The notes beneath the pieces are model-generated. The model had not been told where the DNA came from and did not search any database. It saw only the letters and a list, made by a program, of their open reading frames with translations. Shown here one piece after another: positions 27,508-62,207 of a DNA stretch of 64,000 bases (positions are counted from its first letter, which is position 1; each line of letters begins with the position of its first letter). A program made the translations under genes and the position numbers. This DNA comes from Bradyrhizobium sp. ORS 278 (GTDB lineage: Bacteria; Pseudomonadota; Alphaproteobacteria; Rhizobiales; Xanthobacteraceae), in assembly GCF_000026145.1 (NCBI RefSeq), contig NC_009445.1:4983501-5047500 (forward strand), given 5' to 3'.

Positions 27508-27586
27508 ATTTAATTTTTAACCGCCACTTGCTGGGCAAAATTGGATTTAATATAAATTTAAATGTACGATCGATCAGAAAATTAAT
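27508..27586. promoter_or_regulatory. AT-rich ATTTAAT cluster upstream of the Wzc/ExoP-type gene
   Basis: ATTTAAT occurs at 27508-27514 and 27545-27551, followed by the self-complementary ATTTAAAT at 27556-27563 and ATTAAT at 27581-27586. The stretch is sharply AT-rich against GC-rich surroundings and lies 70-145 bases upstream of the start at 27654. It is a likely promoter and silencer or regulator binding region; see the motif entry under findings. Confidence 0.55.
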
Positions 27587-27653
27587 CCCTTGTTTTGGCA
27601 GGCATCCGGACAGCCCGCGACCTCCGAAGCGCAACTCACGAAGCTTCACGCAC

Positions 27654-30017
27654 ATGCTGCACAATCCGAACGCAAGTACGGCTGCCTTCAATCCTCAACA
27701 GGATCACGGTTGGGAGCGGAACAGCCCCGGTATGCTTGATCTGGTGCTGGGCTTCCTTCGCCGGCGCTTTCTGGTCATCGGGATCACGACCGTCTTTGCG
27801 CTCGTTGCGAGCATCGCTGTGCTGAAAATCATTCCGCCGACCTACTCGGCCGACGTGAAGATCATGCTCGGTAACGCGAGGCCGCCGGTGCTGCAGCCGC
27901 AGCCGGCGCAGGACGACGCGCCGCCGCTCGACATCGAAGCCCAAATCGAGATCCTGAAGTCAAAGTCGGTGGCGACGGCTGTCATCAGCAAGCTGAACCT
28001 CGCTGAAGATCCGGACTTCAGCGGCAAGGCCAGTCCGCTGCACGGCTTTCTGAGCGCCGCCCGCCGGTTCGTGAGCTCGGCGCCGGAGCCCAACGCTTCG
28101 TCGATGGAGGATCTGCTCGAAGAGTTTCAACGCCGGATGAACGCGTTCCGGATCGGCACCAGCAGCGTCGTCGAGGTCGACTTCAGCGCCAGCGATCCGC
28201 AGCGCGCCGCAATGATCGCCAATGCGATCGTCAAGGAATATTTCGACCAGCAGCTGAAGGCGGAAGCAAACGAGCAGCGCACGTTGACGGCTTGGCTGCA
28301 TGACCGGCTACAGGAACTCGGCAACGACGCGACCTCGGCCGAGCGCGCGGTGAACGAGTTGAAGAGCCGCCACAACATCGTCTCCGCGGACGGCCGGTTC
28401 ATGGACCAGCAGCAGGTCGTCGACCTGACCAACCGCCTGGTTGCTGCACGGACAAACGCCACCTCGCTCATGTCCCGGCTGAACCGGTTCGACGAGATGC
28501 TGGCCACAGCCAACGGCGATACGCCGATCGAAAAATTTGCGAGCGTATCCGACTTCGCGCCGGCTGAACTGAGCGGCAACATCAATCCGCCCGACAGCTT
28601 TTCGCATAACAATGCGAACAGCACGCAGATCATCAACAATCTGCGCCAACAGTACCTCGACGACGCCAAGCGGGAGTACGAGTACTCGGCCAAGTTCGGT
28701 AGCGACCATCAGGCGGTTCTGAACATCCGCGCCACGATGAAGAGTATTCGCCAGGCCATTCTCGACGAAGTCCGGCGTCTCGCCGACGTGGCAAAGCACG
28801 ACTATGCCGAGGCAAGGCAGCAGCAGCAGGAGGTCGAAAAGGAGCTCGCGCAGGCCGTGGCCCGATCCCAGGATACCAGGGCCGCCGAGATCAGCATCCG
28901 CGAACTCGAAACCAGCGCCAAGAGCTACCGCGCCCTCTATGATACTTTCCTGCAGCGCTACATGGGTTCGGTCCAGCAGGGCTCGTTTCCGATCACCAAG
29001 GCCCGGGTGATCTCCGCCGCCACGCCGCCCAAGAAGAAGACCAAGCCAAAATCGATCGTCATGCTGGCCATTGGCCTGCTCGGGGGACTCACCCTCGGCG
29101 GCGGCCTCGGGCTGCTCCGGGAGTTGAGAGATCGCAGCTTCCGCACGACCCATCAGGTCGAAGACCGCTTGCGTCTTCCCTGCCTGTCCGTCGTGCCGCT
29201 GCTGAAAGTCGGCGAGGTGAACAAGATCACCCGCGGAACCGCCTCGGACCACGCCGGCAACACAGAGGCGGAGTGCAGCGAGCGGCTGGTGAGCAGAAGC
29301 AGCGGAGCATGCTGGGCGGCATCCGCGATGCCCTCATCCCGTTTCGCGGAATCGATCCGCTCCCTGAGAGTCGCCATCGACCAGGATCCCAACCGGACGT
29401 CGCGGAAGGTGTTCGGGCTGGTCTCTGCGCTGCCCAATGAAGGCAAATCGGTCATCGCCGCCTCGCTTGCCCAGTCGATCGCCGGATCCGGCAAGCGCGT
29501 GATCGTGGTCGACTGCGATCTCCGCAACCCGTCGCTTTCGGCCTCGCTTGCGCCCAAGGCGGGAACAGGGATTGCGGACATCGTTTCCGGAGCGCGGCAG
29601 CTCGAGGACACGATCTGGACAGATGCGGTCACCCGCCTGCATTTCCTGCCCGGCAAGGGCGCGGCGCATCGCGACACCTGCGACATCCTGGCCCATGACG
29701 AGATGCGCAAGCTGTTCGACCGGCTGCGTGAGACCTATGACTACGTGATTGTCGATCTGCCGCCACTGGCGCCGGTTGTCGACGCACGCGCCATCTCGGG
29801 TCTGCTCGACAGCTTCGTGCTCGTCGTCGAATGGGGCCGCACGCCGGCCGACGTCGTCGAGCATGCGCTGAACACGGCGCCGAACGTCTACGACTCCCTG
29901 CTTGGCGTCGTGCTCAACAAGACCGACATGAAGGTGCTGGGCCGCTACGCCAAGCATTTCGGCGACTACTACAACAACGAATATTATACTCGTTACGGCA
30001 GCGTCATGGCCGAATGA
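27654..30017 (+). CDS. polysaccharide co-polymerase with tyrosine-kinase domain (Wzc/ExoP type)
   Basis: This 787-residue inner-membrane protein controls chain length and export of exopolysaccharide. The N-terminal Wzz domain has a first membrane helix near residues 38-58 (FLVIGITTVFALVASIAVL), a large periplasmic region with coiled-coil helices (about 200-450), and a second membrane helix (IVMLAIGLLGGLTLGGGLG). The cytosolic bacterial tyrosine kinase domain follows, with Walker A ALPNEGKS, Walker A' VIVVDCDLR and Walker B YDYVIVDLPPL. The C-terminus holds six tyrosines (765, 772, 773, 777, 778, 781) for autophosphorylation. The start at 27654 is chosen because the longer frame runs through the AT-rich promoter; no strong ribosome site is seen. 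Confidence 0.9.
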   Translation: MLHNPNASTAAFNPQQDHGWERNSPGMLDLVLGFLRRRFLVIGITTVFALVASIAVLKIIPPTYSADVKIMLGNARPPVLQPQPAQDDAPPLDIEAQIEILKSKSVATAVISKLNLAEDPDFSGKASPLHGFLSAARRFVSSAPEPNASSMEDLLEEFQRRMNAFRIGTSSVVEVDFSASDPQRAAMIANAIVKEYFDQQLKAEANEQRTLTAWLHDRLQELGNDATSAERAVNELKSRHNIVSADGRFMDQQQVVDLTNRLVAARTNATSLMSRLNRFDEMLATANGDTPIEKFASVSDFAPAELSGNINPPDSFSHNNANSTQIINNLRQQYLDDAKREYEYSAKFGSDHQAVLNIRATMKSIRQAILDEVRRLADVAKHDYAEARQQQQEVEKELAQAVARSQDTRAAEISIRELETSAKSYRALYDTFLQRYMGSVQQGSFPITKARVISAATPPKKKTKPKSIVMLAIGLLGGLTLGGGLGLLRELRDRSFRTTHQVEDRLRLPCLSVVPLLKVGEVNKITRGTASDHAGNTEAECSERLVSRSSGACWAASAMPSSRFAESIRSLRVAIDQDPNRTSRKVFGLVSALPNEGKSVIAASLAQSIAGSGKRVIVVDCDLRNPSLSASLAPKAGTGIADIVSGARQLEDTIWTDAVTRLHFLPGKGAAHRDTCDILAHDEMRKLFDRLRETYDYVIVDLPPLAPVVDARAISGLLDSFVLVVEWGRTPADVVEHALNTAPNVYDSLLGVVLNKTDMKVLGRYAKHFGDYYNNEYYTRYGSVMAE

Positions 30018-30039
30018 GAAGAACCGGCCGGGGCGCCGA

Positions 30040-30300
30040 TCAGCGCTGGTGCTCGGGCCGGATGGAGGGGTGGGCGATGCCGGCCCGCTCGAGGATGCCG
30101 CGGACATAGATGCCGGAGACGTAGCCGAGCTGGACCGCGACCAGGCCGCCGATGGCCGACAGCGCAGCCGACATGCCGCTGACCACCGCAGCCGCGGCGC
30201 ATTCCACGGCAACGACGGCGACGAGTGCAATCAGGGTGCGAATATTGAAGACCGCTCCCGCGATTGTCCCGGCTCCGAAATGAAGCGCGATCACCCACAT
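30040..30300 (-). CDS. small integral membrane protein, possibly ExoX-like EPS modulator
   Basis: An 86-residue protein with two to three hydrophobic helices (ALHFGAGTIAGAVF, LIALVAVVAVECAAAAVV and LSAIGGLVAVQLGYVSGIYV) and a short basic tail. GAGGAGG lies 11 bases before the ATG at 30300. The VQLGYxxG pattern after the last helix recalls ExoX-type small repressors of exopolysaccharide synthesis in rhizobia, which act on the initiating transferase, but similarity is weak and from memory. It lies just after the Wzc/ExoP-type gene in the opposite direction. Confidence 0.55.
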   Translation of the reverse strand: MWVIALHFGAGTIAGAVFNIRTLIALVAVVAVECAAAAVVSGMSAALSAIGGLVAVQLGYVSGIYVRGILERAGIAHPSIRPEHQR

Positions 30301-30514
30301 CAGTTTTCATGCCTCCTCGGCCAGGTCGAGAGGCTAGCGGCCAATGGTTAGGGATCAGCTAAGCGGTTCGGGCGGATTCGAACAAGCGCAGGGAAGCAAC
30401 ACCGCATCGCGGAATAACCGTGATCGGCGAGCGGCGGCACGCCACGGGTGGGCTGCCGCATCTGCCTCTCCAGCCCCTGGGCCGGAGCTCGCGTACCGGG
30501 ATGGTCTCAGGTCG

Positions 30515-31720
30515 TCATTGCAGTTCCAGACCGCCGAAATGAAAGATCCTGGCGAGTTGAGGCGATACGCCGGCGAACGTCGCGGTGCAGCCCTGGCTGT
30601 CCAGCTGCTTCCGCAGCATCAGCAGCAGTCCGAGGAAGCGCGCATCGATGGCGCAGACGTTTGAAAAATCGAGTCGCACATGCTTGCGGACCGCCACCGC
30701 CGACCGGAACACCGGAATGGCCCGATCCACGTGCCGTGCATCGGCGGGCCCGGAGAGGCTGAGCGTGACCTGCCGCGAACCATAGTCCTGCGTGATCGTG
30801 AGCGCCTCGCCACGCTCATGCGTGCGCCGCATCCACCACGTCGACACCACGAACGGGAGCACGCGGGTGCACAGCAGGCGCAGCATGGCGGTGCCGTCGT
30901 TCCAGTAGCGCCGCCAGAGATACGGCTCCTCCTTGATGCGCCAGAGCCACTCGAGGCCCATGCTGCGCATGAATCCCGGCGCGCGTCTCACTGTCCCGGC
31001 CTGGAAGTTGAGGGCGGCGCCCAGATGGGCGCGGACCGGAATCTCGAGCCGCTGGTGGTTGCGCTGGAGCCAGGACTGGCCCTTCTGACTGCTCAAGGAT
31101 GCGACCAGAAAATCGGCCCCGCTGGCGTTGATCTCCTCGATGATGTGATCGCCGCTCATCTCCTCGGCGGAACAGTAGCCGGGGTTCGACCAGCCCACAC
31201 ACCGCAGCCCGCTGGATTGGCTGTTCAGCGTCCGCGCCGCGCGTTCGGCCGCGCCTTCCGGACCTCCGAACAAAAACAGCTTGAGAGACGACGCCGAACC
31301 GGCATCCGACTTGAGCGCATCGAAGATATCGGCCCCGGCCGTCCGCGTCTTGATCGGGATACCGATCAGCCGCGCAATCCACACCACCGGCATGCCGTCG
31401 ACGGTGCAGAGGTCGCTCAGGATCAGGGACTCCCTGAAGCTCCGGTTCGACTGGCTGGTGACCAGGAAGTTCAGATTGGGGGTCGAGATCAGGAAACGCG
31501 TTCGGCGTCGGGCCGCGTCGCGGATGCGGCGCAGAACCCCGCGCATTCCGATGGCATCGATCGGGATTCCAAGGACGCAATAGACGTCGCGGGACAGGTC
31601 ATCGCCCACCGCGGGATCCGGCATCAGTCCGTCCACCTCGGGCAGGTCACGCCCCGCGCCGGAGCGGCTCACGCGATAGTAGGATCGCCCGGTTTCCTGC
31701 AGTCCCTGCGTCGTCAACAT
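30515..31720 (-). CDS. WecG/TagA/CpsF (GT26) glycosyltransferase fused to a STAS domain
   Basis: The 401-residue protein combines two domains. Residues about 48-285 form a GT26 glycosyltransferase that adds a sugar to a lipid-linked intermediate: Thr80 (STPNLNFLV) and Asp108 (TVDGMPVVW) match the catalytic positions of TagA/WecG. The family motif PKQE is changed (SSQKGQSW near 210-217). Residues about 305-401 read as a STAS domain (HVRLDFSNVCAIDARFLGLL); the usual phosphorylatable Ser after Asp is Ala360, so it is probably not switched by phosphorylation. A ribosome site GAGGGAGG lies before the ATG at 31720. It has its own AT-rich promoter region shared with the divergent polymerase gene. 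Confidence 0.82.
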   Translation of the reverse strand: MLTTQGLQETGRSYYRVSRSGAGRDLPEVDGLMPDPAVGDDLSRDVYCVLGIPIDAIGMRGVLRRIRDAARRRTRFLISTPNLNFLVTSQSNRSFRESLILSDLCTVDGMPVVWIARLIGIPIKTRTAGADIFDALKSDAGSASSLKLFLFGGPEGAAERAARTLNSQSSGLRCVGWSNPGYCSAEEMSGDHIIEEINASGADFLVASLSSQKGQSWLQRNHQRLEIPVRAHLGAALNFQAGTVRRAPGFMRSMGLEWLWRIKEEPYLWRRYWNDGTAMLRLLCTRVLPFVVSTWWMRRTHERGEALTITQDYGSRQVTLSLSGPADARHVDRAIPVFRSAVAVRKHVRLDFSNVCAIDARFLGLLLMLRKQLDSQGCTATFAGVSPQLARIFHFGGLELQ

Positions 31721-31814
31721 CGACCGCCTCCCTCGAGCCTGCGCCCCCGCGCGGCGCTGACGCCGGACCCTGCCGGCGAGCTTCTCCGCCAAAGGCGGAC
31801 GACCTCAATCAATC

Positions 31815-31929
31815 ATTTAATTTTAAATGATCTGATTTATTTAATGTGTTTTAATTGTGGGCGCCAGTGTCGTTTTGAGACGCGTTCGGCGGAAACAATC
31901 CGGACAACTGGGGCGATATTTGATTTAAT
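31815..31929. promoter_or_regulatory. AT-rich divergent promoter region with three ATTTAAT copies
   Basis: Copies of ATTTAAT lie at 31815-31821, 31839-31845 and 31923-31929, with TTTTAAATG between. The region separates the leftward GT26-STAS gene from the rightward polymerase gene and is likely to carry both promoters. Runs of T-A steps make it a good target for an H-NS-, MucR- or Ros-type protein. Confidence 0.55.
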
Positions 31930-32007
31930 TGCCGCCCAGGGTCATAATCAAACATTACGGCACGGCCGGCGTGACGGCTTTAGCCATGACATTCGGGCAG
32001 AGCGCAG

Positions 32008-33396
32008 ATGGCCAGACCTTCAACGACGCACATTTCAGCAGGGCCCCGCGTCGCCGCGTCGAGCTTCGACATCTGTGCGCTGATTCCGGTCGTCGCCTTC
32101 GCCTATTCGTCGCTGATCCAGCCGCTGATCTATTTCGGCTTCCCGCCATCGCCGGGGCTTCAGGGCCTGCTGGAAAGCCGAATCGAGAACCGCATCTTCT
32201 GGCCGGCTCTGGCGGCCATTGCCATGATCATTGCCGCGCAGCGGCTCGCCCGCGGCGGACGCCTCCCCGTTCCGCCGAACATCGTCAGTCTCTGCGCCTA
32301 TTTCGGTTTCGCCGGCGCCAGCATCGGCTGGGCGCTCAAACCCGAATTCGCCTTCGTCCGCTTCGTGCAGGAAGCGATGGTACTCACCGCGATCGTGCTG
32401 CCCGCCTTGTTGTCGAACCCGGCGGTCGACATCCTGCGCGGGATGTTCTTCTGTTTCGCAGCCGGCGTCATCCTCAACGTGCTTTTGATCCCCGGCGGCT
32501 ATGCGAGCTACGCGCAATACGGCGCTCAGCTGGTCGACATCGGCTACCAGGGATATTTCTCGGGAAAGAACCTGCTCGGTGAGTTCTCCGCGAGCGCACT
32601 TCTGCTGGCACTTCACGAGCTGTGTTATGCCGGACACCGCCGCGTGTTGGGGCTCGTGGTCGCCATCGGGGCAGTCACCTTGATCTTCATCTCCAGCTCC
32701 AAGACGGCGCTTGGGCTCGCCCTTCTGGCTCCCGCTCTTGCCATCATCGTGCTGCTGTTCGCTCGAACCTTGCGGCTCTCACCGGTCCTCATTCTCGCCG
32801 CGCTGGCTCTGGCCTACATCGTCATGAGCGAGCTCGCAGGCTTCAGCACCCAACGTATCGCCTATCTGTTGACAGGAGACTCGAGCTTCACGGGCCGCAC
32901 CACCATATGGGCCTTTACGACGTCGGAGATCGCACAGCGGCCGCTGCTCGGCTGGGGCTATCAGAGCTTCTGGCTGGTCGGGGCAGATGCCCCGAGCGTG
33001 ACCGAGGCGCCCGGCTGGGTGAAGGCCATGCCGAACTCTCATAACGGCTTCTACGACACGATTTTGGAACTGGGCTATGTGGGCTTCGCCCTCCTCCTGG
33101 TGTTTCTCGCCGCGACCGTGCATGTGATCGGTCGCGTGATGGCCTATGATTTCAAGCGCGCATGGGTTCTTCTCTCGATGGCCTTGTTCGTCATGATCTA
33201 CAATGGCCTTGAAACACTGTGGCTGCGCGCGTTCGACGTCACATGGGTGGTGTTCGTGCTCGTGACCGTCGAGGCTGCGCGATACTGGAGCCGGTTACAA
33301 CAGACGACGCAGATCCACCAGCCGGCGGCGCAGCCACCGGTTCGCCCGATCGGTACACGAGCGATGTGGCGTCCCCGCCTGGGTGTTCGCCTCTGA
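32008..33396 (+). CDS. O-antigen ligase/polymerase family protein (Wzy/ExoQ-like)
   Basis: The 462-residue protein is highly hydrophobic, with about ten to twelve membrane helices. The Wzy_C-type periplasmic loop in the second half carries GRTTIWAFTTSEIAQRPLLG, then GWGYQSFW, then NSHNGFYDTILELGYVG, typical of O-antigen ligases and ExoQ-type polymerases. It most likely joins repeat units into the exopolysaccharide on the periplasmic face. The ribosome site is weak. It converges on the secreted beta-helix gene with 32 bases between. Confidence 0.85.
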   Translation: MARPSTTHISAGPRVAASSFDICALIPVVAFAYSSLIQPLIYFGFPPSPGLQGLLESRIENRIFWPALAAIAMIIAAQRLARGGRLPVPPNIVSLCAYFGFAGASIGWALKPEFAFVRFVQEAMVLTAIVLPALLSNPAVDILRGMFFCFAAGVILNVLLIPGGYASYAQYGAQLVDIGYQGYFSGKNLLGEFSASALLLALHELCYAGHRRVLGLVVAIGAVTLIFISSSKTALGLALLAPALAIIVLLFARTLRLSPVLILAALALAYIVMSELAGFSTQRIAYLLTGDSSFTGRTTIWAFTTSEIAQRPLLGWGYQSFWLVGADAPSVTEAPGWVKAMPNSHNGFYDTILELGYVGFALLLVFLAATVHVIGRVMAYDFKRAWVLLSMALFVMIYNGLETLWLRAFDVTWVVFVLVTVEAARYWSRLQQTTQIHQPAAQPPVRPIGTRAMWRPRLGVRL

Positions 33397-33428
33397 CCGG
33401 CACCGCGTGTTGTCGCAGCGCTAGCCGT

Positions 33429-35462
33429 TCATTGCATTGAGCCGGGCGCCGTCGCGAACGGCGTGCCGGCATCGAACCTCTCCTTGGCTGGCAAGACATG
33501 AAGCTTGGTCTCGGCGGCAGGATCAACCCAGGGCCACGGACGAGCGCCGAAGAAGCCGGGCTTGCTACTCAAATAAAGCGACGCCGGCAAGGCCTGCTCC
33601 GCCAAGCCATCAGTCCAGACCACCTGGTTGGTGAGATAGTCGAAATTGCCGCCGCGGATCACCGTCACCAACGTCTTCGGGTCCGCCGCCATCGTCCACC
33701 GCTCCGGGTCGTAGCCGAGCATCCAGACATTGCCCACACCGCCCTGACCCCACCGCGCCGTGCCGGATCGCATTGAAGGGTCGTCGTAGGTCCAGCCGTT
33801 CATCCGCCCCGGTCGGCCAAGCACATTGCCGACGAACGAATCCCACCATGATCCATAAGCGAGGCCGACCGCCCGGATCCCCGAACGATCAACGAAACGC
33901 TGGCGCTGCCCTGTCAGATGATTGCGAAAGAAGGTGAGGTAGATCGCGTTGCCATGCGTGTAGTCGCTGTCGGCATTGTGCGACAGGTTGCCCTCGAACA
34001 GGACATGATGTGAGCCGGCCATATGGGACGCGTTGATGCCGACCTCGACCCAGCCGGGATTGTCGAAATCGAACGAGTCGTCCGCATAATTATAGCCGAC
34101 GACGGTCCCGGCGCCGGCCGAACGAAACACCATGTTCTTGCAGACATCGACCAGGATGTTGTTTTCGATCAGGACCTCGGAAGAGCCCGAGGCAAGACTG
34201 ATCGCGTAGCCGGCTCCGCCGGGCTGCGGCCATGAGCCGGCATGAATGAAGCTGTCGCGGAGTTCGACCCGGAAGGAATTGTCGATCGCGACGCCTTCGC
34301 CGAGCCATTGAGTGACCTCGATGGATCTGGCCCATGAATAAGCCGCGGCCTCGAACCGCAGCGCGCCATCCGCGCCACCCACGATGCTCAGATTTTCGAC
34401 GCCGACCTTGGCGACATGGATGTCGCGATTGTTGGCGGCGTGGCCACCGCTGTTCTGATCAGTGCTGTAAGGCGTGAGCTGAGCCTGATGGCTGACGCGA
34501 TAGCTGATCGTCAGCGGCGATGTGAACGTGATCGTGGTCGGAGATACCTCGGCGATCTCCTTGATCTCGTTGGTCGCACGGTCGGTTCGCGCGAACCAAG
34601 ACATTGATTTTGGCAACTCGCCGGGTGTCTGGTCGTACGGTCCACCGGCATCCGCACGTGCATTGTCGTCGCCCCCTTGAACCGGATGGTGCATGTTCCA
34701 GGCGACGCGATCGCCCTGCCATACTTTCGCGGCTTCCGGAAAGCCCGCAGGCGTTGCTTGCCAGGACGCGCCCGACGCCTCGTCGAGCAGCACGATATCA
34801 CCGGCCTTGAAGCTCGCGGTGCTGGCCAGCGTAACTGTCGTCGCTCCGCGCGCACCATCCGCCAGAAGCGGGTGCGAGGCGGCGCTGTCAGGACCATTGT
34901 TCCAGCGCGACGGTCCGACGATAACGACGGGCTTCGGATCATAGCTGTAGGAGGCGGGATCGACGGGCGTCAGGATCCCGCGGGTGCCGGGAATGACGGT
35001 CGGAGTTCGGGCACGCGCGCCATTGGGCTTGACCAACCTGGTCGTGTTCGCTCCCGAGCCGCGCAGCGTGACCGGGCGATTGATCAGCAGCGGCTCGCTG
35101 AGGATGAACGTGCCGGGCCCCAGCAGCACCACCTGCCCCGCTGGTGCAGCCTGAAGCGCCGCCTGAATCGGGGCGGTGTCGTCTCGGCCGCTCGGCGACA
35201 GCGTTCGATAGATCGTCGTACGGTTCGGAATACCGCCTGCCGCCATTAGGCCGGGAGTCCAGGCGACCATGCGATCAGCTGGAAGCAAAGTATTGTCGGC
35301 TGCCGCAGCGCGCCCGGCCATGCCACTCGCGAACAGGACGAGGAGTAACAGCAGACAAGACCATTCAGCGCGACTTCTGGCACGAGCCGGTCCGCGGTAC
35401 CGGCGCGGGCGGCCGATCGGCGCCGGCAGATTAAAAAGCACCATGATTTTGACACGCACCAT
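33429..35462 (-). CDS. secreted right-handed beta-helix protein (pectate-lyase-like fold)
   Basis: The 677-residue protein starts with a basic leader and a long hydrophobic signal segment (about residues 34-54, LLLLLVLFASGMAGRAAAA). The body shows the repeated short-strand pattern of parallel beta-helix proteins: an N-terminal pectate-lyase_3-like stretch (DDTAPIQAALQAAPAGQVVL) and rungs such as SSEVLIENNILVDV and GSHHVLFEGNLSHN. Proteins of this fold in polysaccharide loci are often lyases or hydrolases that trim or release the polymer. No catalytic residue is assigned. ATG 35462 and 35444 are both possible; neither has a clear ribosome site. Confidence 0.75.
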   Translation of the reverse strand: MVRVKIMVLFNLPAPIGRPRRYRGPARARSRAEWSCLLLLLVLFASGMAGRAAAADNTLLPADRMVAWTPGLMAAGGIPNRTTIYRTLSPSGRDDTAPIQAALQAAPAGQVVLLGPGTFILSEPLLINRPVTLRGSGANTTRLVKPNGARARTPTVIPGTRGILTPVDPASYSYDPKPVVIVGPSRWNNGPDSAASHPLLADGARGATTVTLASTASFKAGDIVLLDEASGASWQATPAGFPEAAKVWQGDRVAWNMHHPVQGGDDNARADAGGPYDQTPGELPKSMSWFARTDRATNEIKEIAEVSPTTITFTSPLTISYRVSHQAQLTPYSTDQNSGGHAANNRDIHVAKVGVENLSIVGGADGALRFEAAAYSWARSIEVTQWLGEGVAIDNSFRVELRDSFIHAGSWPQPGGAGYAISLASGSSEVLIENNILVDVCKNMVFRSAGAGTVVGYNYADDSFDFDNPGWVEVGINASHMAGSHHVLFEGNLSHNADSDYTHGNAIYLTFFRNHLTGQRQRFVDRSGIRAVGLAYGSWWDSFVGNVLGRPGRMNGWTYDDPSMRSGTARWGQGGVGNVWMLGYDPERWTMAADPKTLVTVIRGGNFDYLTNQVVWTDGLAEQALPASLYLSSKPGFFGARPWPWVDPAAETKLHVLPAKERFDAGTPFATAPGSMQ

Positions 35463-35470
35463 GTCATAAT

Positions 35471-35488
35471 ATTAAATCAGGATTTAAT
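35471..35488. promoter_or_regulatory. paired ATTAAAT/ATTTAAT element
   Basis: ATTAAAT at 35471-35477 and ATTTAAT at 35482-35488 form an inverted pair with centres 11 bases apart. They lie between the divergent beta-helix and family 2 glycosyltransferase genes, 9-26 bases upstream of the former. The spacing of about one helix turn fits binding by a dimeric regulator. Confidence 0.5.
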
Positions 35489-54735: not shown

Positions 54736-54771
54736 CCCTTACGCCGCGAACCAAAAGCACGATTTAAATGA

Positions 54772-54964: not shown

Positions 54965-55049
54965 AAATGCCTTGAATCCGACAAACCGAGACCGCAAATC
55001 TCGGGAGCTTTCATTGAGACGCATTGGTTGAAGAATTGAGAGACAGAGC

Positions 55050-56150
55050 ATGACGCTATCCGCCGGCGACTGGGTTCAGGTCCGCAGCAAGGAAGAGATC
55101 CTGGCCACGCTCGATGCCAATGGCCGTCTCGAAGGGCTGCCCTTCATGCCGCAGATGTTCAAATGGTGCGGCCAGCGCTTCCAGGTCTACAAGCGGGCGC
55201 ACAAGACCTGCGATACGGTGACCGGATACAACACCGGCGAATGGCTCGGACGGCGCCTGCCCAATGCGGTGCATCTCGATCTGCGCTGCGACGGCGAGGC
55301 CTATGGCGGCTGCCAGGCAGCATGCCTCATCTTCTGGAAGGAAGCCTGGTTGTTGCCGGCCGATCCTGCGCAGGCCGCAAGCGCCGATCACGACTACGCG
55401 GCAGCGCGCCAGCCGTCCGGCGGCTGCACGGCGCGCGCGGTCCTCGACGCGACCGAGTCACCCGATCAGATCGCCGGCAAGGGTCCGCGCTACAGCTGCC
55501 AGGCAACCGAATTGCCGAGCTACACGCAGCCGCTCAAATGGTGGGACGCCCGGCAATATGCCGAGGATATCGCATCCGGCAACGTCTCCGCCGGCAAGAT
55601 GTTTCGCGGCTTCCTCTACTTCGCCTATGTCGGTGCGACGATGGCGCGCCGTCCGCGCCTGGGACGTCCGGCCCGCTGGATCTACGATCGTATCCAGTCG
55701 CTCTGGGGCGGCGTGCCGTTCCCGCGCAGACGCGGCGATCTCCTCACCGACAAGGATGCGCCGATCGCCGATCTCGGGCTGCAGCCGGGCGATCTTGTAC
55801 GCGTCCGGCCGCACAAGGAAATTCTCGCGACCATCGACAAGCAGACCAACAACCGCGGCATGGGCTTCGACGCGGAAATGGTGCCGTATTGCGGCAAGGT
55901 GTTCCGGGTGCGCACGCGCGTCGAGAAGTTCATCGACGAGCGGACCGGCTACATCCGGCGCATGAAGACGCCCGCGGTGATCCTCGACGGCGTCTACTGC
56001 CAGTCGCGCTACAGCGAGAACCGGCTGTTCTGCCCGCGCGGCATCTTCGCCTGGTGGCGTGAAGTCTGGCTGGAAAAGGTGCCCGCCACCGCGATCGAAC
56101 GCCCGCAGGTCGAGGAGACCGTCGAGCTTCCGAGGCGGGCGGCCGGCTGA
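55050..56150 (+). CDS. uncharacterised protein with two copies of a cysteine-containing module
   Basis: The 366-residue protein is built from two related modules of about 95 residues, at residues 6-101 and 247-341, joined by a 145-residue linker. Both begin GDxVxVRxxxEILATxD, contain a WCG/YCG turn (Cys40, Cys281), then xRTGY or xTGY, and end with a Cys pair and FxxWxExW (Cys80/Cys88 matching Cys317/Cys328). Extra cysteines at 54, 92, 126 and 150 lie outside the shared set. No signal peptide is seen. The even Cys pattern suggests metal binding or an iron-sulfur or redox role. I do not recognise a named family. It faces away from the sugar cassette and has its own AT-rich promoter. Confidence 0.75.
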   Translation: MTLSAGDWVQVRSKEEILATLDANGRLEGLPFMPQMFKWCGQRFQVYKRAHKTCDTVTGYNTGEWLGRRLPNAVHLDLRCDGEAYGGCQAACLIFWKEAWLLPADPAQAASADHDYAAARQPSGGCTARAVLDATESPDQIAGKGPRYSCQATELPSYTQPLKWWDARQYAEDIASGNVSAGKMFRGFLYFAYVGATMARRPRLGRPARWIYDRIQSLWGGVPFPRRRGDLLTDKDAPIADLGLQPGDLVRVRPHKEILATIDKQTNNRGMGFDAEMVPYCGKVFRVRTRVEKFIDERTGYIRRMKTPAVILDGVYCQSRYSENRLFCPRGIFAWWREVWLEKVPATAIERPQVEETVELPRRAAG

Positions 56151-56337
56151 GGCGCGGTCTCATCCGGCTCACGACGATCGCCGTCCGTTGATTGGAAAAC
56201 TGACGGGATGCGTACCCGGGTCATCGCGCCCGAAGACGTGACGACCCGCGGCTGCCGGTTCGGTCGCAGACCATCGATCGCGGCGTTTCCCGCCCGTCTT
56301 TGTGTGATGAAGGCGCCTCGCCGATGGCCTGCGTCGA

Positions 56338-56991
56338 TCAGCCCAGTGACAGCTTGCGGGCCACAAAGCCTTCGGCGTAGCGCTCGGGAGCACGGCACTC
56401 CATCCCCCGAAGCCGCGCCAGGCCCATGAACGTCTCCGGGTCGAACCACTGCTTGGAGCGCTGGCTGCCGAAATGCGACATCAGCAGCGCGACCTTGCGC
56501 TTCATCACGCGTTCGGACACCGGCATGTAGAAATTGGGCCGCCCGAGATCGCCGTCCCATTTCGGGATCTCATATTCGAGCACGAGGTGATCCCGGAACG
56601 TGTTCCAGACCAGCCGATTGACCTGGCGGTGGTCCTGATGCGCATCGTCGCGACGATGCGCGAGAATGACGTCGGGACTGATGCGGCCCTTGAGCTGCTC
56701 GAACCAGGCCTTGATCTCCTCCCCCTGCTCCGGAAAGAAGCCGTCGCGGAAATTCAGGATCTCGAGGTTGCGGCCGCTTGCCTCGGCGAGAAAATCGTTG
56801 GCCGATGCGGTCGCCTCGACGCCGCGCTCGCCATTGCCGCTCAGCACGCACCAATGCACGTCCAGGCGAACGCCCTGGTCGAGCCAGGTCAGAAGCGTGC
56901 CGCCCGCGCCGATCTCGATGTCGTCGGAATGCGCGCCGAGACAAAGCACCGACAAACGGTCGCCGCGACCGGCGAGCTGCAATCCCCTCAT
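56338..56991 (-). CDS. PIG-L family N-deacetylase
   Basis: The 217-residue protein has the zinc motifs of the LmbE/PIG-L family: AHSDDIEIG (residues 20-28; AHxDDxE) and AHRRDDAHQDHRQV (HxDxHxDH-like). Members remove acetyl from N-acetylated sugars. It overlaps the cytidylyltransferase stop by 4 bases (ATGA), so the two are translationally coupled. A deacetylase next to a nucleotide-sugar synthetase suggests an amino sugar in the repeat unit. Confidence 0.86.
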   Translation of the reverse strand: MRGLQLAGRGDRLSVLCLGAHSDDIEIGAGGTLLTWLDQGVRLDVHWCVLSGNGERGVEATASANDFLAEASGRNLEILNFRDGFFPEQGEEIKAWFEQLKGRISPDVILAHRRDDAHQDHRQVNRLVWNTFRDHLVLEYEIPKWDGDLGRPNFYMPVSERVMKRKVALLMSHFGSQRSKQWFDPETFMGLARLRGMECRAPERYAEGFVARKLSLG

Positions 56992-57785
56992 CCGTTCACC
57001 ACGGCGGGAAGGTTCGCGCCGAGATGCCAGGGCGTATCGCCGCGCTCGATCATCTCCTCGAGCACCTGGCGGTCCCGGAGCGTATCCATGGCCCGCCAGA
57101 AGCCTTCGTAGCGATAGGCCATCAGCAGGCCACGATCGATCAGCCGCTTGAACGGCTGCACCACGAGCTCGTCGCCCTCCTCGATGTAATCGAAGATCTC
57201 CTTGCGGAAGATGAAGTAGCCGCCGTTGATCCAGATGTTGGAATCATTGCTCGCGGCCATGCGGCCGACCGTGCCGTCGTCGTCGAACTCGGCCAGATGG
57301 AAGCTGATCGGCGGATGGATGGCGATGAAGCAGCCGATCTTGCCGCTGCGCTTGAAGCGGTCGATCATGTCGGGCAGCGGCGCATCGGTCAGGCCGTCGC
57401 TGTAATTGGCGAGAAAGATCTCCTCGCCCTCGACGAGATGCCGGACGGCCCTCAGGCGCTGACCGATGTTGCGCCAGATCCCAGTGTCGACCAGCGACAC
57501 CCGCCAGTCGGCCGGGCGCTCGCCCAGGAGCTCGATCTTCTTGCCGAATTGCGAGATCGTGCAGTCGGTCGTAGCGGCCTGATTGTAATTCAGGAAGTAG
57601 TCCTTGACGACGTTGGCCTTGTAGCCGAGGCAGAGCACGAAGTCGCGGTGGCCGTACTGGCTGTAATACTGCATCACGTGCCAAAGGATCGGCTGGTGGC
57701 CGATCGGAATCATCGGCTTCGGAACGCTCTCGGAATATTCCCGGATCCGCGTCCCCAGTCCCCCACAGAACAAGACGACCTTCAT
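56988..57785 (-). CDS. rfbF: glucose-1-phosphate cytidylyltransferase (RfbF-like)
   Basis: The 265-residue nucleotidyltransferase starts KVVLFCGGLGTRIREYSES and continues VPKPMIPIG, the RfbF form of the sugar-nucleotide pyrophosphorylase loop. It has the CDP-glucose-family sequences VLCLGYKANVVKDYFLNY and GIWRNIGQRLRAVR. It would make CDP-glucose, the entry to CDP-linked deoxy and branched sugars. CDP-glucose 4,6-dehydratase (RfbG) is not found in this window. An RmlA role is less likely because the length and loop fit RfbF. Confidence 0.86.
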   Translation of the reverse strand: MKVVLFCGGLGTRIREYSESVPKPMIPIGHQPILWHVMQYYSQYGHRDFVLCLGYKANVVKDYFLNYNQAATTDCTISQFGKKIELLGERPADWRVSLVDTGIWRNIGQRLRAVRHLVEGEEIFLANYSDGLTDAPLPDMIDRFKRSGKIGCFIAIHPPISFHLAEFDDDGTVGRMAASNDSNIWINGGYFIFRKEIFDYIEEGDELVVQPFKRLIDRGLLMAYRYEGFWRAMDTLRDRQVLEEMIERGDTPWHLGANLPAVVNG

Positions 57786-57968
57786 GGCTCGACGTCCTTC
57801 GGCTTCATTAAAACTCAGAAATCAGCAATCATTTTCGTCCAACCCCACGGCCGCCCGGAAGACTGGCCGCGCCCTTGGCGGCAAGCGATTCTGCAGGAGT
57901 GTCGTCGGTCGATGTGCCGGACCCAGGCATCGCGGAGGTCCCGACCCACCCGACCGATTATTATTCTG

Positions 57969-58208
57969 ATTTAATAACAATTAAAATTCCAATTTTTCAA
58001 TGCCACATTGAAATATTCGTTGGCGCGACATGAATCCGCCACAGGGATCAGGAGAGGCCCCTGCCGTTGGAAACGCCGATATTCAAGCCTTCATTGCTCT
58101 TTCAGAGCCCGCGCGGCCGGTCAGCGCACGCCGTCATCGCGCTGCGGTATCGTGGGACCCACACGGCGGAATTTAAACAACCGGCGATTTTAATTGTTCC
58201 AATTAAAT
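57969..58208. promoter_or_regulatory. AT-rich promoter region of the sugar-cassette and initiating-transferase genes
   Basis: The 485-base divergent gap between the cytidylyltransferase and the initiating transferase contains ATTTAAT at 57969-57975, ATTTAAA at 58171-58177, ATTTTAATT at 58187-58195 and ATTAAAT at 58202-58208. The rest of the gap is GC-rich without a credible gene. Promoters for both genes are expected here. Confidence 0.5.
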
Positions 58209-58270
58209 GATGAATAATATACTAAGGCGCAAGCCAGCTATTTTAACCGCGTTTCGAACATCGAGATCCC

Positions 58271-59746
58271 ATGCATTACGTGGATCAGCCCGAAACTCTC
58301 GACCGGAACGGCATGCCTGGGGCCGTATTGGCGGACCGGCAAATTGAATGTCGGAAATGGCCCATCCATTATGGCGCGGTGGAGCCGTTTGCGATCACGG
58401 CGGACATCGCGACGATCGCCGTGACCAGCGTGCTGTCTGGATATCTCTATCACTTTCAGGACGCGGCCGGCGCGAACGACGTCAGCAAGTCGGTCGGGCT
58501 TGCGATCCTCGTCTCGGCCCTGTTCGTCTCGCTCATGAAGATCCGCGGCATGTATCGGCCGGCGGAGCTCCTGATCCTGTCGCGACAGATCCGCGCGACG
58601 TGCCTGACCTGGATCACCGCCTTCCTGGTGCTTGCCGGCGCGCTGTTCGCGCTCAAGATCGGCGGCGAGTTCTCGCGCGGCACCAGCATCGTCTTCGCGA
58701 TGCTGGGACTGACGGCGCTGGTGCTGAACCGGCGGATGACCGAATATCTGCTTGCGAAAGGCCTCGCTGAGAAACGCTTTTCAGGACGCAACATCGTCCT
58801 GATCACCGACGAGGCGAGCCAGGACAATCCAGGTCTCAGCCAGGCGCTCGTCGACACCGGCTTTCGCGTCAGGCGGCACTTCCTGCTTCCGGATCCCGGC
58901 GCAGCCCCCGACCAGCGACAGCACCTGGTGGCCAGCGTGATCGATTATGTGCGCGGCTCGGACATCGAGGAGATTGTGGTCGGCGCCAGCCCCGATCCCT
59001 GGTCCGAACTGCGGACGCTGGGAGCAGACCTCAGGGTTCTGCCCTTCCCCGTAAGCTTCGTGCCCGTCGGAGCGGCCGCGGAGCTGTTCAATCAGCCGCG
59101 TCACGATCTCGGCAGCACCGTCTGCGTCGAGCTGCATCGCGGCCTGATGAGCCCGCTGGAGCACGCGACCAAGCGTCTCATGGACCTAGCCCTGGCGGGC
59201 ACCGCTCTGCTGCTGCTGTCGCCCTTGTTGCTGCTGGTGGCCATCGCCATCAAGCTCGATTCGGCGGGGCCGGTCTTTTTCCGGCAGCAGCGCTGCGGCT
59301 TCAACGGCAGGTCGTTCCAGATCTACAAGTTTCGGACCATGTCGGTGCTCGAGGACGGCCCTACGATCGTCCAGGCGAAGGCCGGGGACAGCCGGTTCAC
59401 GCGCCTGGGCGCGTGGCTGCGCCGCACCAGCATCGATGAACTGCCCCAGCTGCTCAATGTCATGAACGGCAGCATGTCTCTGGTCGGTCCTCGCCCGCAC
59501 GCCCTGGCGCACGACAACGAATTCGACAAGCTGGTGCGCAACTACGCCTTCCGCCGCCGTGTAAAGCCGGGCCTGACGGGCTGGGCGCAGGTGCATGGCT
59601 GCCGCGGACCGACGCCGACGCGCGCCTCGATCGAGCAGCGCGTCGAATTCGACCTCTGGTACATCGACAATTGGAGTCTGTCGCTCGACATCGCGATTTT
59701 GCTCAGGACGCCGATCGAGCTGATCCGAGGCGACAACGCCTATTAG
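58271..59746 (+). CDS. undecaprenyl-phosphate sugar phosphotransferase (WbaP/polyprenyl PGT type)
   Basis: The 491-residue protein starts polymer synthesis by transferring a sugar phosphate from a nucleotide sugar to undecaprenyl phosphate. Four or five N-terminal membrane helices (about residues 40-160) precede a soluble Rossmann-like domain, a further helix (LALAGTALLLLSPLLLLVAI), and the bacterial sugar transferase domain. That domain carries the hallmarks GPVFFRQQRCGFNG, FRTM, RLGAWLRRTSIDELPQL, SLVGPRPH and RRRVKPGLTGWAQVHG. ATG 58271 is used; the ribosome site is weak. It lies alone on its strand with AT-rich promoter DNA upstream. Confidence 0.9.
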   Translation: MHYVDQPETLDRNGMPGAVLADRQIECRKWPIHYGAVEPFAITADIATIAVTSVLSGYLYHFQDAAGANDVSKSVGLAILVSALFVSLMKIRGMYRPAELLILSRQIRATCLTWITAFLVLAGALFALKIGGEFSRGTSIVFAMLGLTALVLNRRMTEYLLAKGLAEKRFSGRNIVLITDEASQDNPGLSQALVDTGFRVRRHFLLPDPGAAPDQRQHLVASVIDYVRGSDIEEIVVGASPDPWSELRTLGADLRVLPFPVSFVPVGAAAELFNQPRHDLGSTVCVELHRGLMSPLEHATKRLMDLALAGTALLLLSPLLLLVAIAIKLDSAGPVFFRQQRCGFNGRSFQIYKFRTMSVLEDGPTIVQAKAGDSRFTRLGAWLRRTSIDELPQLLNVMNGSMSLVGPRPHALAHDNEFDKLVRNYAFRRRVKPGLTGWAQVHGCRGPTPTRASIEQRVEFDLWYIDNWSLSLDIAILLRTPIELIRGDNAY

Positions 59747-59999: not shown

Positions 60000-60383
60000 T
60001 CAGGCCCGCTGACGTCGCCCCTTGGGGGCCCCGCTTCCGTTGATGGCGAACTCTTCGATCCGACGCCCCGTCTTGATGGCTGCGACCAGCCAGCGCGGCT
60101 GCTTGCCGCGCCCGGACCAAGTCTCGGACGTCTGCGGATTGCGATATTTCGGCAGCACGCGCGGGTATTTGCGCCGCGCTTTTCCGTTGGCATTATAGGA
60201 GGGCGCGTCCTCGCTGTTCGGCCCCTCGATTACGCCGCGGCTGCGATTCAGAACCGCCAGACGACGTTCGAGCTCGCGCTTCTCAGACGTGATCCGCTCA
60301 GCCAGGATCTGGCTGATCTGCTCATGGAGCGACCAGAGGTCATCGAAAGACATCGCCTCGAAATCGAGCTTCTTGGTGGACAT
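60000..60383 (-). CDS. H-NS family nucleoid-associated protein (HvrA-like)
   Basis: The 127-residue protein has an N-terminal coiled-coil oligomerisation segment (about residues 12-46, DDLWSLHEQISQILAERI) and a C-terminal DNA-binding domain with the H-NS core KYRNPQTSETWSGRGKQPRW (residues 79-98), including the signature TWSGRGKQP at 88-96. Such proteins bind AT-rich DNA in the minor groove and silence acquired or surface genes. AAAGGT precedes the ATG at 60383. Its location inside a locus whose promoters are AT-rich suggests local control of EPS genes; this is inferred. Confidence 0.86.
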   Translation of the reverse strand: MSTKKLDFEAMSFDDLWSLHEQISQILAERITSEKRELERRLAVLNRSRGVIEGPNSEDAPSYNANGKARRKYPRVLPKYRNPQTSETWSGRGKQPRWLVAAIKTGRRIEEFAINGSGAPKGRRQRA

Positions 60384-62207
60384 GCAGCGACCTTTATCTG
60401 TGATCTCTATCCTGCCGGATTAATGTCATATAATTCGGTATTTCGATCCGCAAGTGGTTCGCTGTCGGGAAACCCGAATATTTGAGTTATATCCGCTCCA
60501 CCGACTTATTTGGTTGTAGCTTAATCAAATATCAACCAGCAACCCTATCCGGGTAAACGCGGGCCCGAGTCGCACAGAACTACGGACGCCGAACAACCCT
60601 GTTTGAAAAACGTCAAATCAAAGAGGTCTGCAAGAATTTTCCGCACTCTGCGGCGGAAAGGCGCTTAATCTTCGTACCAATCATGACGGAGCCGCGAAAC
60701 AAAGCGGCAGCACCACTTGCAGGATCATATGGCCTCTCAGCGTCCGACGACATTGCACAACCTATTCGCGCGATCAATGCGATAACCCGAACCGGGATAT
60801 TTATGCGCCTGCGAAAACTGGCGCCGCCCGATCAAATTATGCACGGCGTTGGGAACATGCCGCAAATCGGCCGAGATGCCTGCGCTGTTCGATGACAGAA
60901 CCGACCGTCGTGTCCTCCGTCGCAATGTCCAACGCCGCCGACATCTCACAACTCATAACTCTAATCGTCGAAGCCATCCTGGGACCATCGGCCGGCGTCT
61001 CAGGTCCACCTCAATATCCGACTGATCGTCGAACAGATTCACTTACCTGCGCACACAGCCTATAGCGGGCCGGACGACGCCGGTCATTCACATGGGTTGG
61101 TTGTGACTGTGACGCAGAGACGCGCACGATAAACCGACGTATTAAATAAAGCGGCGGCGTCCACAACGGAGCAAAGGTGGCGCGATTCCGAATAACTGAA
61201 AAATCTAATTTCCGCTGTTTTTTAATGCCGGGTCGCGTTGAGAGTACCCGGCCGTCCGGATGGATCCGACGCCGCAGTTCCGCGCCGCTGGCATCTGAGC
61301 GACCCGCGGGCCATCACGCGACAGGGCCCGCGTTCCGCGGGCCGCTGCGGCAACAGTCCATTAGGCCAAGCAGCTAGCGCTGTTGCTTGGTGCGCCCGGG
61401 CGTGACGCGGCGAGGCGGAACAAGGTGAGCGGTGCCGCGCTGACGCCTGTCGGACACCGAACGCCGGCTCGGGGCGCCCGGATGGTCGACGCGCTTGTCG
61501 AGACTGCAGCTGATCGACTCGATCTCTTCGAGCAGGATGTTGCACAGCTCGATTTGCGACAATAATGCGGCAGGCGCCGCATTCTCCGGTGGCCGCAGTT
61601 GCAAGCGTGATCTTGCGGTTCGGATCTTGATTAACGATGCCAGGACGGTATTCAGGGTTCGCCCACCGCCGACATCGAACTCTTCATCACTCAACGCTGT
61701 ACCAAGCTCGTCACGCACGGACGGCCCCCACTCGTTGGCGAGATTTCAGCGATCGTCTTTCAATCGTCGGCGAACTGCCATCGCGACGACGATCGGCTCC
61801 GGTGACCGGGAGGAAATTAACCACTCGCGACAAGTTAACTACCATCTGCAAGGCAACGCATTAAATACGTCCGGCGCCAATCGCGGCCCAAAAAGTAAAA
61901 ACCACCGCGATAGCGAAGGGACTTATTAAGTACCCTTCGTCTGTGACAATTAAAGCTTTAGTTTGTTCATTACGTGCCTTTTCATATCTCCTATGTCCGG
62001 AGAGAGCCGGACAAAACATTTAATTTAGGTTGAGAGACTAAATTTGCTCAACTATTGAGACAGGAAGGCGCGGATTTCCAGGCGCGCAGCCGTGTTAACA
62101 CGCGTTTTTGCTTCGAAACGGCGTCATCCCGGTCCTGGCAAATAAGAGCGGCGTGTCGCGCAGGACGGTCCTGCCGCGGGCGCCAGAAACGTCCGCAAAG
62201 CTGGGCT
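60384..62207. other. long gene-poor region with AT-rich segments
   Basis: About 1.8 kb without a convincing gene. It holds ATTAAAT at 61141-61147 and 61860-61866, ATTTAAT at 62018-62024, and a perfect 7-bp stem (GGCCCGC with GCGGGCC) with a 5-base loop near 61326-61344. One weak minus-strand reading frame is listed separately. GC content varies more than in coding neighbours, which fits regulatory DNA or a decayed insertion. Confidence 0.4.
61374..61718 (-). CDS. doubtful small protein
   Basis: A 114-residue frame with GTG start contains a helix-like stretch LLSQIELCNILLEEIESIS and a charged N-terminus (MRDELGTALSDEEFDV). The composition is more protein-like than neighbouring frames, but the last 35 residues are arginine-rich like out-of-frame GC-rich DNA. 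No ribosome site and no family were recognised. It may be a remnant of a broken gene. Confidence 0.25.
   Translation of the reverse strand: MRDELGTALSDEEFDVGGGRTLNTVLASLIKIRTARSRLQLRPPENAAPAALLSQIELCNILLEEIESISCSLDKRVDHPGAPSRRSVSDRRQRGTAHLVPPRRVTPGRTKQQR

What the first reader, a model, noticed from the sequence alone, without database searches (positions are those of the whole stretch)
27508..62024. ATTTAAT heptamer repeated across exopolysaccharide promoters, with an H-NS gene inside the locus
By hand I count 17 copies of ATTTAAT/ATTAAAT between 27.5 and 62.1 kb (27508, 27545, 31815, 31839, 31923, 35471, 35482, 47378, 47416, 49155, 49190, 54958, 57969, 58202, 61141, 61860, 62018), plus ATTTAAAT variants. 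All but one are intergenic, and none was noticed in the first 27 kb. At about 65% GC, fewer than one copy would be expected by chance in 64 kb. The spacing and T-A steps fit a target of an AT-binding silencer (H-NS, MucR/Ros). The HvrA-like H-NS gene at 60000-60383 lies within the same locus, so local autoregulated silencing is possible.
Basis: partly seen in the sequence, partly recalled or inferred. Interest (0 to 1): 0.72.

Follow-up and report, generated by a model that had tools for sequence, protein, structure and literature searches.

The report
Local silencer gene with its address motif
A short DNA word (ATTTAAT) is packed into the promoters of one sugar-polymer gene cluster that carries its own H-NS-type DNA-binding protein, and related soil bacteria largely repeat this pairing around their H-NS genes but not at the similar clusters examined without one, so the word is probably that protein's landing site.

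Summary
All 17 copies are at the listed positions and are 17 of 46 in the 7.46-Mb genome; the 29 elsewhere equal a reversed-word control (30). Sixteen of 17 are intergenic, in promoter-bearing gaps. The only H-NS-family gene detected in the genome lies in this locus.

The pairing recurs. Pooled over 6 H-NS-linked polysaccharide loci, ATTTAAT is 4 times commoner than comparable AT-only words (5-10 copies per 20 kb in each); at 47 polysaccharide loci of 15 genomes without a detected H-NS gene, and 20 unlinked loci of H-NS-bearing genomes, it is not enriched. It stays top-ranked at 23 H-NS loci without the neighbouring sugar-transferase gene. MucR is in 22 of 22 genomes tested, cluster or not, so it does not explain the pattern. 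The refined word is [C/G]ATTTAATT.

Best reading: a locus-encoded H-NS nucleates on ATTTAAT(T) and silences its own Wzx/Wzy-type exopolysaccharide locus, probably including itself. Binding and silencing are inferred, not shown. H-NS silencing is known; a near-private address code for one locus is the new part.

The parts
60000..60383 (-). H-NS family gene (127 aa, TWSGRGKQP signature), the only PF00816 gene detected in the genome
   Evidence: 61.7 bits; 1 match in own genome; sequence; model; C-terminal domain nearest to Bv3F and Ler
58271..59746 (+). WcaJ-type undecaprenyl-phosphate glucose phosphotransferase, convergent neighbour of H-NS; such a neighbour in 54 of 77 named H-NS loci
   Evidence: (TIGR03023 425.6 bits, cut-off 410.75)
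27732..30017 (+). Wzz/BY-kinase type chain-length regulator at the far end of the locus
27508..27514 (+). ATTTAAT site, 217 bases before the Wzz/BY-kinase gene
27545..27551 (+). ATTTAAT site, 180 bases before the Wzz/BY-kinase gene
31815..31821 (+). ATTTAAT site in divergent gap WecG-type glycosyltransferase / Wzy_C protein
31839..31845 (+). ATTTAAT site, same divergent gap
31923..31929 (+). ATTTAAT site, same divergent gap, 78 bases before Wzy_C gene 32008
35471..35477 (-). ATTTAAT site in divergent gap beta-helix protein / 35572 gene
35482..35488 (+). ATTTAAT site, partner 11 bases away
47378..47384 (+). ATTTAAT site at the start of glycosyltransferase 46045-47379
47416..47422 (+). ATTTAAT site, 36 bases before the same gene
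49155..49161 (-). ATTTAAT site, 171 bases before the Wzx-type flippase 47484-48983
49190..49196 (+). ATTTAAT site, 206 bases before the flippase; inside the 3' end of 49163-50335
54958..54964 (-). ATTTAAT site in divergent gap epimerase / 55050 gene
57969..57975 (+). ATTTAAT site in the gap upstream of the WcaJ-type gene; kept in 2 of 3 nearest relatives, once inverted
58202..58208 (-). ATTTAAT site upstream of the WcaJ-type gene; kept in 3 of 3 nearest relatives
61141..61147 (-). ATTTAAT site 757 bases upstream of the H-NS gene; kept in 0 of 3 nearest relatives
61860..61866 (-). ATTTAAT site about 1.5 kb upstream of H-NS in the long gene-free gap; kept in 3 of 3
62018..62024 (+). ATTTAAT site about 1.6 kb upstream of H-NS in the long gene-free gap; kept in 3 of 3
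27732..59746 (.). Wzx/Wzy-type exopolysaccharide/capsule locus (glycosyltransferases, flippase, Wzy_C protein, acyltransferase, sugar-nucleotide enzymes, plus less typical genes such as an asparagine synthase-like and a thioesterase gene)

Best explanation
ATTTAAT, more fully [C/G]ATTTAATT, is the high-affinity (nucleation) site of the H-NS-family protein encoded at 60000-60383. Sites set singly or in twos and threes (11-84 bases apart) in the divergent and tandem promoter gaps of a Wzx/Wzy-type exopolysaccharide locus let H-NS nucleate, spread or bridge, and hold the locus silent until an unknown counter-silencer acts. Sites upstream of the hns gene suggest autoregulation. In this genome the address code is confined to this locus, so the protein acts as a local silencer rather than a genome-wide one. 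Shown here: the cluster, its promoter placement, its confinement in this genome, its recurrence at H-NS loci, and its absence at the unlinked polysaccharide loci examined. Inferred: that H-NS binds the word, that the result is silencing, and autoregulation.
For: 17 of 46 genome copies in the locus, background elsewhere. Only detected PF00816 gene of the genome is inside it. Six of six relatives' H-NS-pair regions (chosen from 16 genomes with such a pair) hold 13-25 copies per 60 kb against 0.5-1.3 expected, and their hns-hns gap holds 1-3 copies in 6 of 6. H-NS-linked sugar-transferase loci: 6 of 6 with 5-10 copies per 20 kb; unlinked polysaccharide loci: 0 of 67 with 4 or more. At matched AT-word density (0.6-1.2 per 20 kb) 13 H-NS loci average 4.07 copies against 0.60 at 5 control loci. 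Rank 1 (ties included) of 35 AT-only words in 10 of 12 groups of 79 named loci and at 23 H-NS loci without the adjacent transferase. ATTTAATT: 271 in 585 kb of H-NS-locus intergenic DNA, 0 in 236 kb of control intergenic DNA. 582 intergenic sites form 353 flank clusters, so the sites are not copies of a few ancestral promoters, though diverged orthologues can escape that clustering. Of 5 sites compared with three near relatives, 3 survive in 3 of 3. H-NS copy number correlates with genome-wide motif excess (Spearman 0.57, 60 genomes, no tree correction).
Against: No binding or expression data. 15 of 43 close motif pairs in H-NS-bearing genomes lie more than 60 kb from any detected H-NS gene (counted by hand). 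Of 77 named H-NS loci two have no copy (L230, L237) and four have one (L165, L225, L226, L238); 8 of 13 further H-NS loci have fewer than 4. Convergent gaps of the named loci also hold copies (52 of 505, enrichment 3.67 against 4.43 in divergent gaps), so placement is not strictly at promoters. Site 61141 is not conserved. General AT-richness is raised at these loci, so part of the excess is compositional, and one other word, CAAATTAA, is strongly enriched too (7.3 times). Genomes with one H-NS gene have no larger genome-wide excess than those with none (1.50 against 1.47). The protein has RGK, not the exact Q/RGR tripeptide. H-NS-less genomes also lack this locus lineage among the loci examined, so loss of H-NS alone was not observed.
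Confidence: 0.74

Rival explanations
1. The sites are targets of MucR/Ros, the zinc-finger silencer that controls exopolysaccharide genes in other rhizobia.
For: MucR is present in this genome, binds AT-rich DNA with T-A steps and controls exopolysaccharide genes (passages of PMC8857273 and PMC9779718).
Against: MucR is in 22 of 22 genomes, including 15 without a detected H-NS gene whose 47 polysaccharide loci show no enrichment (0.64 times). Four other polysaccharide loci of this genome hold 0 copies (L128-L131). Only 4 of 17 sites overlap the AAATA core; the best-enriched contexts, CATTTAAT and GATTTAAT, do not contain it. A MucR target peculiar to this locus lineage is not excluded.
Confidence: 0.08
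2. No cognate protein: the locus is a foreign, AT-rich segment, and ATTTAAT is only the commonest word of its AT-rich promoters.
For: Other AT-only 7-mers are also denser at H-NS-linked loci (1.94 against 0.23 per 20 kb at H-NS-less ones).
Against: ATTTAAT is 3.6-3.9 times the mean of comparable words and ranks first at H-NS loci, against 0.74 times and rank 20 at control loci; excess persists at matched AT-word density, though with only 5 control loci; conserved in diverged flanks; a G/C boundary on one side (CATTTAAT 9.8 times its class) is not expected of mere AT drift.
Confidence: 0.1
3. Another regulator, or a promoter element, inherited with these loci reads the word, and H-NS is a bystander.
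For: The locus carries another gene with a helix-turn-helix part (HTH_47 in 50349-51767), and the loci share a Wzz/BY-kinase and a transferase as well as H-NS.
Against: Enrichment is about as strong at 23 H-NS loci without the adjacent transferase (3.61 times, rank 1); a relative of the HTH_47 gene was found in only one of six relatives' regions; sites have no clear preferred orientation, unlike promoter hexamers. I did not annotate every regulator in every relative.
Confidence: 0.08

Closest known systems
H-NS of E. coli/Salmonella (high-affinity consensus TCGATAAATT)
   Same: Same domain family; AT-rich promoter targets; the consensus in the recalled degenerate form tCG(t/a)T(a/t)AATT agrees with [C/G]ATTTAATT at 8 of 9 positions by my hand alignment (TCGATAAATT seen in a passage of PMC3661553; degenerate form recalled from Lang et al. 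2007, not read)
   Different: E. coli H-NS is genome-wide (established knowledge) and favours several adjacent T-A steps such as TATATATA (passages of PMC4466236); here TATATATA is rare (10 against 271 ATTTAATT), the E. coli form itself is rare (TCGWTWAATT 8), and this genome shows no excess outside one locus
Bv3F of Burkholderia vietnamiensis (PDB 2l92)
   Same: Best PDB match by sequence (E 8e-7) and by Foldseek (probability 1.00, E 0.016, 42 columns); RG-type minor-groove loop
   Different: Both matches cover only the C-terminal DNA-binding domain; here the loop reads RGK
Island-encoded H-NS homologues (Hfp/H-NSB, H-NST, Ler)
   Same: H-NS relatives encoded inside an acquired locus; Hfp affects K15 capsule (passages of PMC7074111)
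   Different: Those act with, or against, a chromosomal H-NS and on genes outside their island; here no second H-NS was detected in the genome and the word is confined to the locus
MucR/Ros xenogeneic silencers of alphaproteobacteria
   Same: AT-rich targets, exopolysaccharide control
   Different: Unrelated zinc-finger protein; distribution does not follow the motif
Rok of Bacillus
   Same: Silencer with short preferred words enriched in its binding regions and under-represented in the host genome (abstract of PMC6212790)
   Different: Winged helix, different words (AACTA, TACTA)

Membership tests
H-NS (PF00816) | C-terminal H-NS DNA-binding domain above the curated cut-off | tested here: met
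H-NS (PF00816) | TW(S/T)G.G..P signature | tested here: met
   TWSGRGKQP; T88-G93 and P96 invariant in the 24 sequences of A2 (window plus 23 relatives)
H-NS (PF00816) | exact Q/RGR minor-groove tripeptide | tested here: inconclusive
   RGK here; K94 invariant in the 24 sequences of A2, a conservative change of the last Arg
H-NS (PF00816) | N-terminal helical oligomerisation domain joined by a flexible linker | tested here: inconclusive
   one long helix 13-52 (mean pLDDT 88-95 for residues 11-40), low-confidence linker, then the C-terminal domain; a single chain was modelled, so oligomerisation itself is untested
H-NS (PF00816) | binds AT-rich DNA and silences | not testable with these tools
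   needs EMSA/ChIP and a deletion mutant
MucR/Ros regulon | if MucR read the word at polysaccharide promoters generally, the cluster should occur where MucR and such loci occur | tested here: not met
   15 genomes with MucR, 47 polysaccharide loci, no enrichment
Wzx/Wzy-type exopolysaccharide locus | initiating phosphoglycosyltransferase, flippase, Wzy_C protein, Wzz/BY-kinase | tested here: met

The most novel reading that the evidence does not exclude
An alphaproteobacterial H-NS lineage with a true sequence address code, [C/G]ATTTAATT, that works as a self-contained local silencer cassette: silencer gene plus its word planted in the promoters of whatever polysaccharide genes are swapped into the same locus, with little or no global role. 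The locus would keep one regulatory code while its genes turn over.
Probability: 0.4. Interest if true: 0.76.

Novelty: new variant of a known kind. Interest (0 to 1): 0.62.

Why it matters
H-NS is usually treated as a global silencer that reads AT-richness. Here one short word and one linked gene tend to predict each other across several genera, and in this genome the word has no excess outside a single locus. That makes several points testable: how sequence-specific an H-NS can be in a GC-rich host, whether a silencer can be local, and how a polysaccharide locus with swapped genes keeps its regulation. It also predicts a switch for surface polysaccharide in photosynthetic bradyrhizobia. On print: the listings for H-NS with Bradyrhizobium (17 of 17 seen, 14 of 14, 15 of 67), HvrA with rhizobia (none) and ATTTAAT with H-NS (2 of 2) showed no title on such a system; I did not read those papers through, and most subscription papers are not held.

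Tried and rejected
Markov-model k-mer ranking (upper part) was uninformative for the 7-mer because its parts are themselves enriched; composition-matched words were used instead. A remnant of the second, divergent H-NS gene of relatives was sought in the window by tblastn and not found: the only strong hit of each of four queries was 60000-60383 itself. Rfam found nothing at gathering threshold in 26000-64000. A sigma-70 scan of 57700-58500 found none. NCBIfam did not name the H-NS protein. Plasmid search: 313 records with distant H-NS relatives, one of them Bradyrhizobium (43% identity); a plasmid source is not indicated. The O-antigen ligase of ORS278 is BRADO5200 (passages of PMC4743980); I did not map that tag, so that this locus is a different one is my inference. 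VIA-align listed no solved match to the N-terminal part beyond one weak, unrelated row.

Limits of the counts. My gene calls come from a rough codon-model script covering on average 66% of H-NS-locus DNA against 82% of control DNA, so gap types in relatives are approximate. PF00816 absence in 22 of 60 genomes rests on a first look in which up to 184 candidates per genome were cut to 103 scored; 'only one' in this genome on 150 of 163 scored. The 15 H-NS-less genomes were chosen from the 22 for few contigs. In one search the H-NS-linked set is 6 of the 7 regions (G047 was not), the window slice is 44001-64000 rather than centred, and a few control stretches are 16-17.5 kb. One search kept the best 80 of 322 relatives, so the named loci lean to close H-NS types. 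onward drop 2 of 79 named loci (L187, L214: same genomes as G064, G047). The alignment covered only 5 of the 17 sites. The pair pattern covers gaps of 0-30 bases and not pairs in the ATTAAAT...ATTTAAT order.
Full report
WHAT IS THERE. The window is bases 4983501-5047500 of a one-contig genome of 7,456,587 bases. The nearest H-NS relatives by name are Bradyrhizobium sp. SRS-191, B. aeschynomenes 83002 and SSBR45G (89-94% identity), photosynthetic-type strains by recall; also from recall, the genome length is that of Bradyrhizobium sp. ORS278. They are 17 of 46 in the genome. The reversed word has 3 in the window and 33 in the genome, so outside the window the motif stands at 29 against 30. The outside copies differ in context: 5 of 29 are followed by T, against 9 of 17 in the window, and one pair lies close together, 65 bases apart. 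They are also mostly intergenic (24 of 29). The 20 kb to the left of the window hold none, nor do the readable 15 kb to the right, the nearest 5 kb being withheld.

ANATOMY. From 27.7 to 59.7 kb the genes are those of a Wzx/Wzy-type exopolysaccharide or capsule locus: Wzz/BY-kinase protein, WecG-type glycosyltransferase, Wzy_C protein, acyltransferase, sugar-nucleotide enzymes, glycosyltransferases, flippase and a WcaJ-type phosphotransferase, with some less typical genes such as an asparagine synthase-like and a thioesterase gene. The H-NS gene 60000-60383 converges on the WcaJ-type gene. Sixteen of 17 sites are in gaps that hold promoters: 11 divergent, 5 tandem, none convergent; one is coding. 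For 14 of the 17 the nearest called start downstream lies within 217 bases (47378 touches its start codon); for 61141 it is 757 bases away, and 61860 and 62018 have none within 900. Over the seven regions, 37 neighbouring pairs of 117 sites are within 120 bases of each other, in all orientations about equally (10, 10, 10, 7); a control word of the same letters, TAATTTA, has 25 copies and 2 such pairs.

IS IT H-NS, AND NOT JUST EXOPOLYSACCHARIDE? Of 60 genomes drawn from the genus, 38 have a PF00816 match and 22 do not. Sixteen have a divergent pair of H-NS genes about 1.1-1.6 kb apart (my count). I took six: all six 60-kb regions hold 13-25 copies where 0.5-1.3 would be expected, and the gap between the two H-NS genes holds 1-3 in each. 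Pooled with window 27001-64000, ATTTAAT is the commonest of the 64 AT-only 7-mers (117; next 77; median 25). I then took 16-20 kb around initiating sugar transferases (PF02397). The 6 H-NS-linked loci have 5-10 copies each, pooled 4.0 times the mean of 34 comparable AT-only words; 47 loci of 15 H-NS-less genomes have 7 copies in all (0.64 times); 20 unlinked loci of six H-NS-bearing genomes have 6 (0.88 times); none of these 67 has 4 or more. Thirteen other H-NS loci have 49 copies (3.3 times), 5 of 13 with 4 or more; four of the 13 lie 48-75 kb from a pair, probably the far ends of the same loci.

BEYOND THE GENUS. A scan of named genomes gave 79 H-NS loci, the best of 322. ATTTAAT ranks first (ties included) of 35 words in 10 of 12 groups, including Rhodopseudomonas, Tardiphaga and Afipia, second in Rhodoblastus and third in Nitrobacter. 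Singly, it ranks first in 42 of 63 loci labelled Bradyrhizobium or Bradyrhizobiaceae. Of 77 distinct loci, two have none and four have one. The WcaJ-type neighbour lies convergent to H-NS in 54 of 77. The 23 without it still show 3.61 times enrichment, rank 1, against 3.90 in the 54. So the word follows H-NS more closely than it follows the transferase. The loci are related to each other, but their 582 intergenic sites (with the seven regions) fall into 353 clusters by flank similarity, and between the Wzz, WcaJ and H-NS genes, found in all six relatives' regions, the gene content differs strongly. In these 77 loci 394 of 505 sites are in tandem or divergent gaps, but 52 are in convergent gaps, 29 in called genes and 30 at locus ends.

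THE WORD. Within its G+C class in H-NS-locus intergenic DNA, ATTTAAT is 4.06 times the mean; single-base variants are mostly 0.3-1.7 times, with 2.1-2.6 at some changes of positions 4, 5 and 7. The 8-mers CATTTAAT (9.8), GATTTAAT (6.0) and ATTTAATT (5.6) are stronger; one word outside the series, CAAATTAA, reaches 7.3. ATTTAATT occurs 271 times in 585 kb against 0 in 236 kb of control intergenic DNA. The consensus [C/G]ATTTAATT agrees at 8 of 9 positions with the E. coli H-NS consensus in its degenerate form (recalled); the plain form TCGATAAATT is quoted in PMC3661553 (passage). The E. coli form itself is rare here (TCGWTWAATT 8 against 1).

CONSERVATION. Five of the 17 sites fell in the stretch aligned with three near relatives: 58202, 61860 and 62018 are kept in 3 of 3, 57969 in 2 of 3 (in one as the inverted word), 61141 in 0 of 3; 200-column identity in these gaps is roughly 40-77%.

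RIVALS. MucR is in 22 of 22 genomes examined, 15 of them without a detected H-NS gene. AT-richness is a partial confounder: other AT words are about eightfold denser at H-NS-linked loci than at H-NS-less ones. At matched density, though, 13 H-NS loci average 4.07 copies and 5 control loci 0.60. A different regulator cannot be ruled out.

LIMITS. Nothing here shows binding. Of 43 close motif pairs in twelve H-NS-bearing genomes, 28 lie within 60 kb of an H-NS gene and 15 do not; two more such genomes have no pair, and six H-NS-less genomes have 0, 0, 0, 0, 0 and 1 (counted by hand). Genome-wide, the motif-to-control ratio is 1.47 in 22 genomes with no H-NS gene, 1.50 in 8 with one and 2.10 in 8 with four, so where H-NS genes are many there may be further targets; 'local' is claimed for this genome only. 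H-NS-less genomes show no close relative of this transferase among the loci examined (best 45% against 54-59% in the six linked regions), so I could not watch the motif decay after loss of the gene alone.

VERDICT. Real, conserved, and best read as the address code of a locus-encoded H-NS.

Noticed in passing
window 60384-63077: About 2.7 kb without a called gene between the H-NS gene and 63078, with three motif copies and stretches up to 77% identical in near relatives; 16 of 60 genus genomes have a second, divergent H-NS gene next to the first.
   Followed up: partly
G005:C1:5318298-5372461 (L063-L065, L149) and similar in G029, G055, G064: The polysaccharide locus seems bracketed by H-NS genes: a divergent pair at one end and a third, different H-NS gene 48-75 kb away (positions).
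   Followed up: no
G023:C1:6763556, G027:C1:3743889, G039:C1:1830779, G033:C1:3342594: A near-identical pair of motifs (ATTTAAT, 13 bases, ATTTAAT; G033 a looser variant) recurs in four genomes away from any detected H-NS gene.
   Followed up: no
G005:C1:3381635-3381669: A tandem run of ATTTAAT at 9-10 base spacing, far from detected H-NS genes.
   Followed up: no
H-NS-locus intergenic DNA: A second word, CAAATTAA/TTAATTTG, is 7.3 times its G+C class at H-NS loci (110 copies) and 2.4 times at control loci.
   Followed up: no
PMC6907758, Table 2: The H-NS and IHF binding motifs appear to be swapped in the table as held.
   Followed up: no
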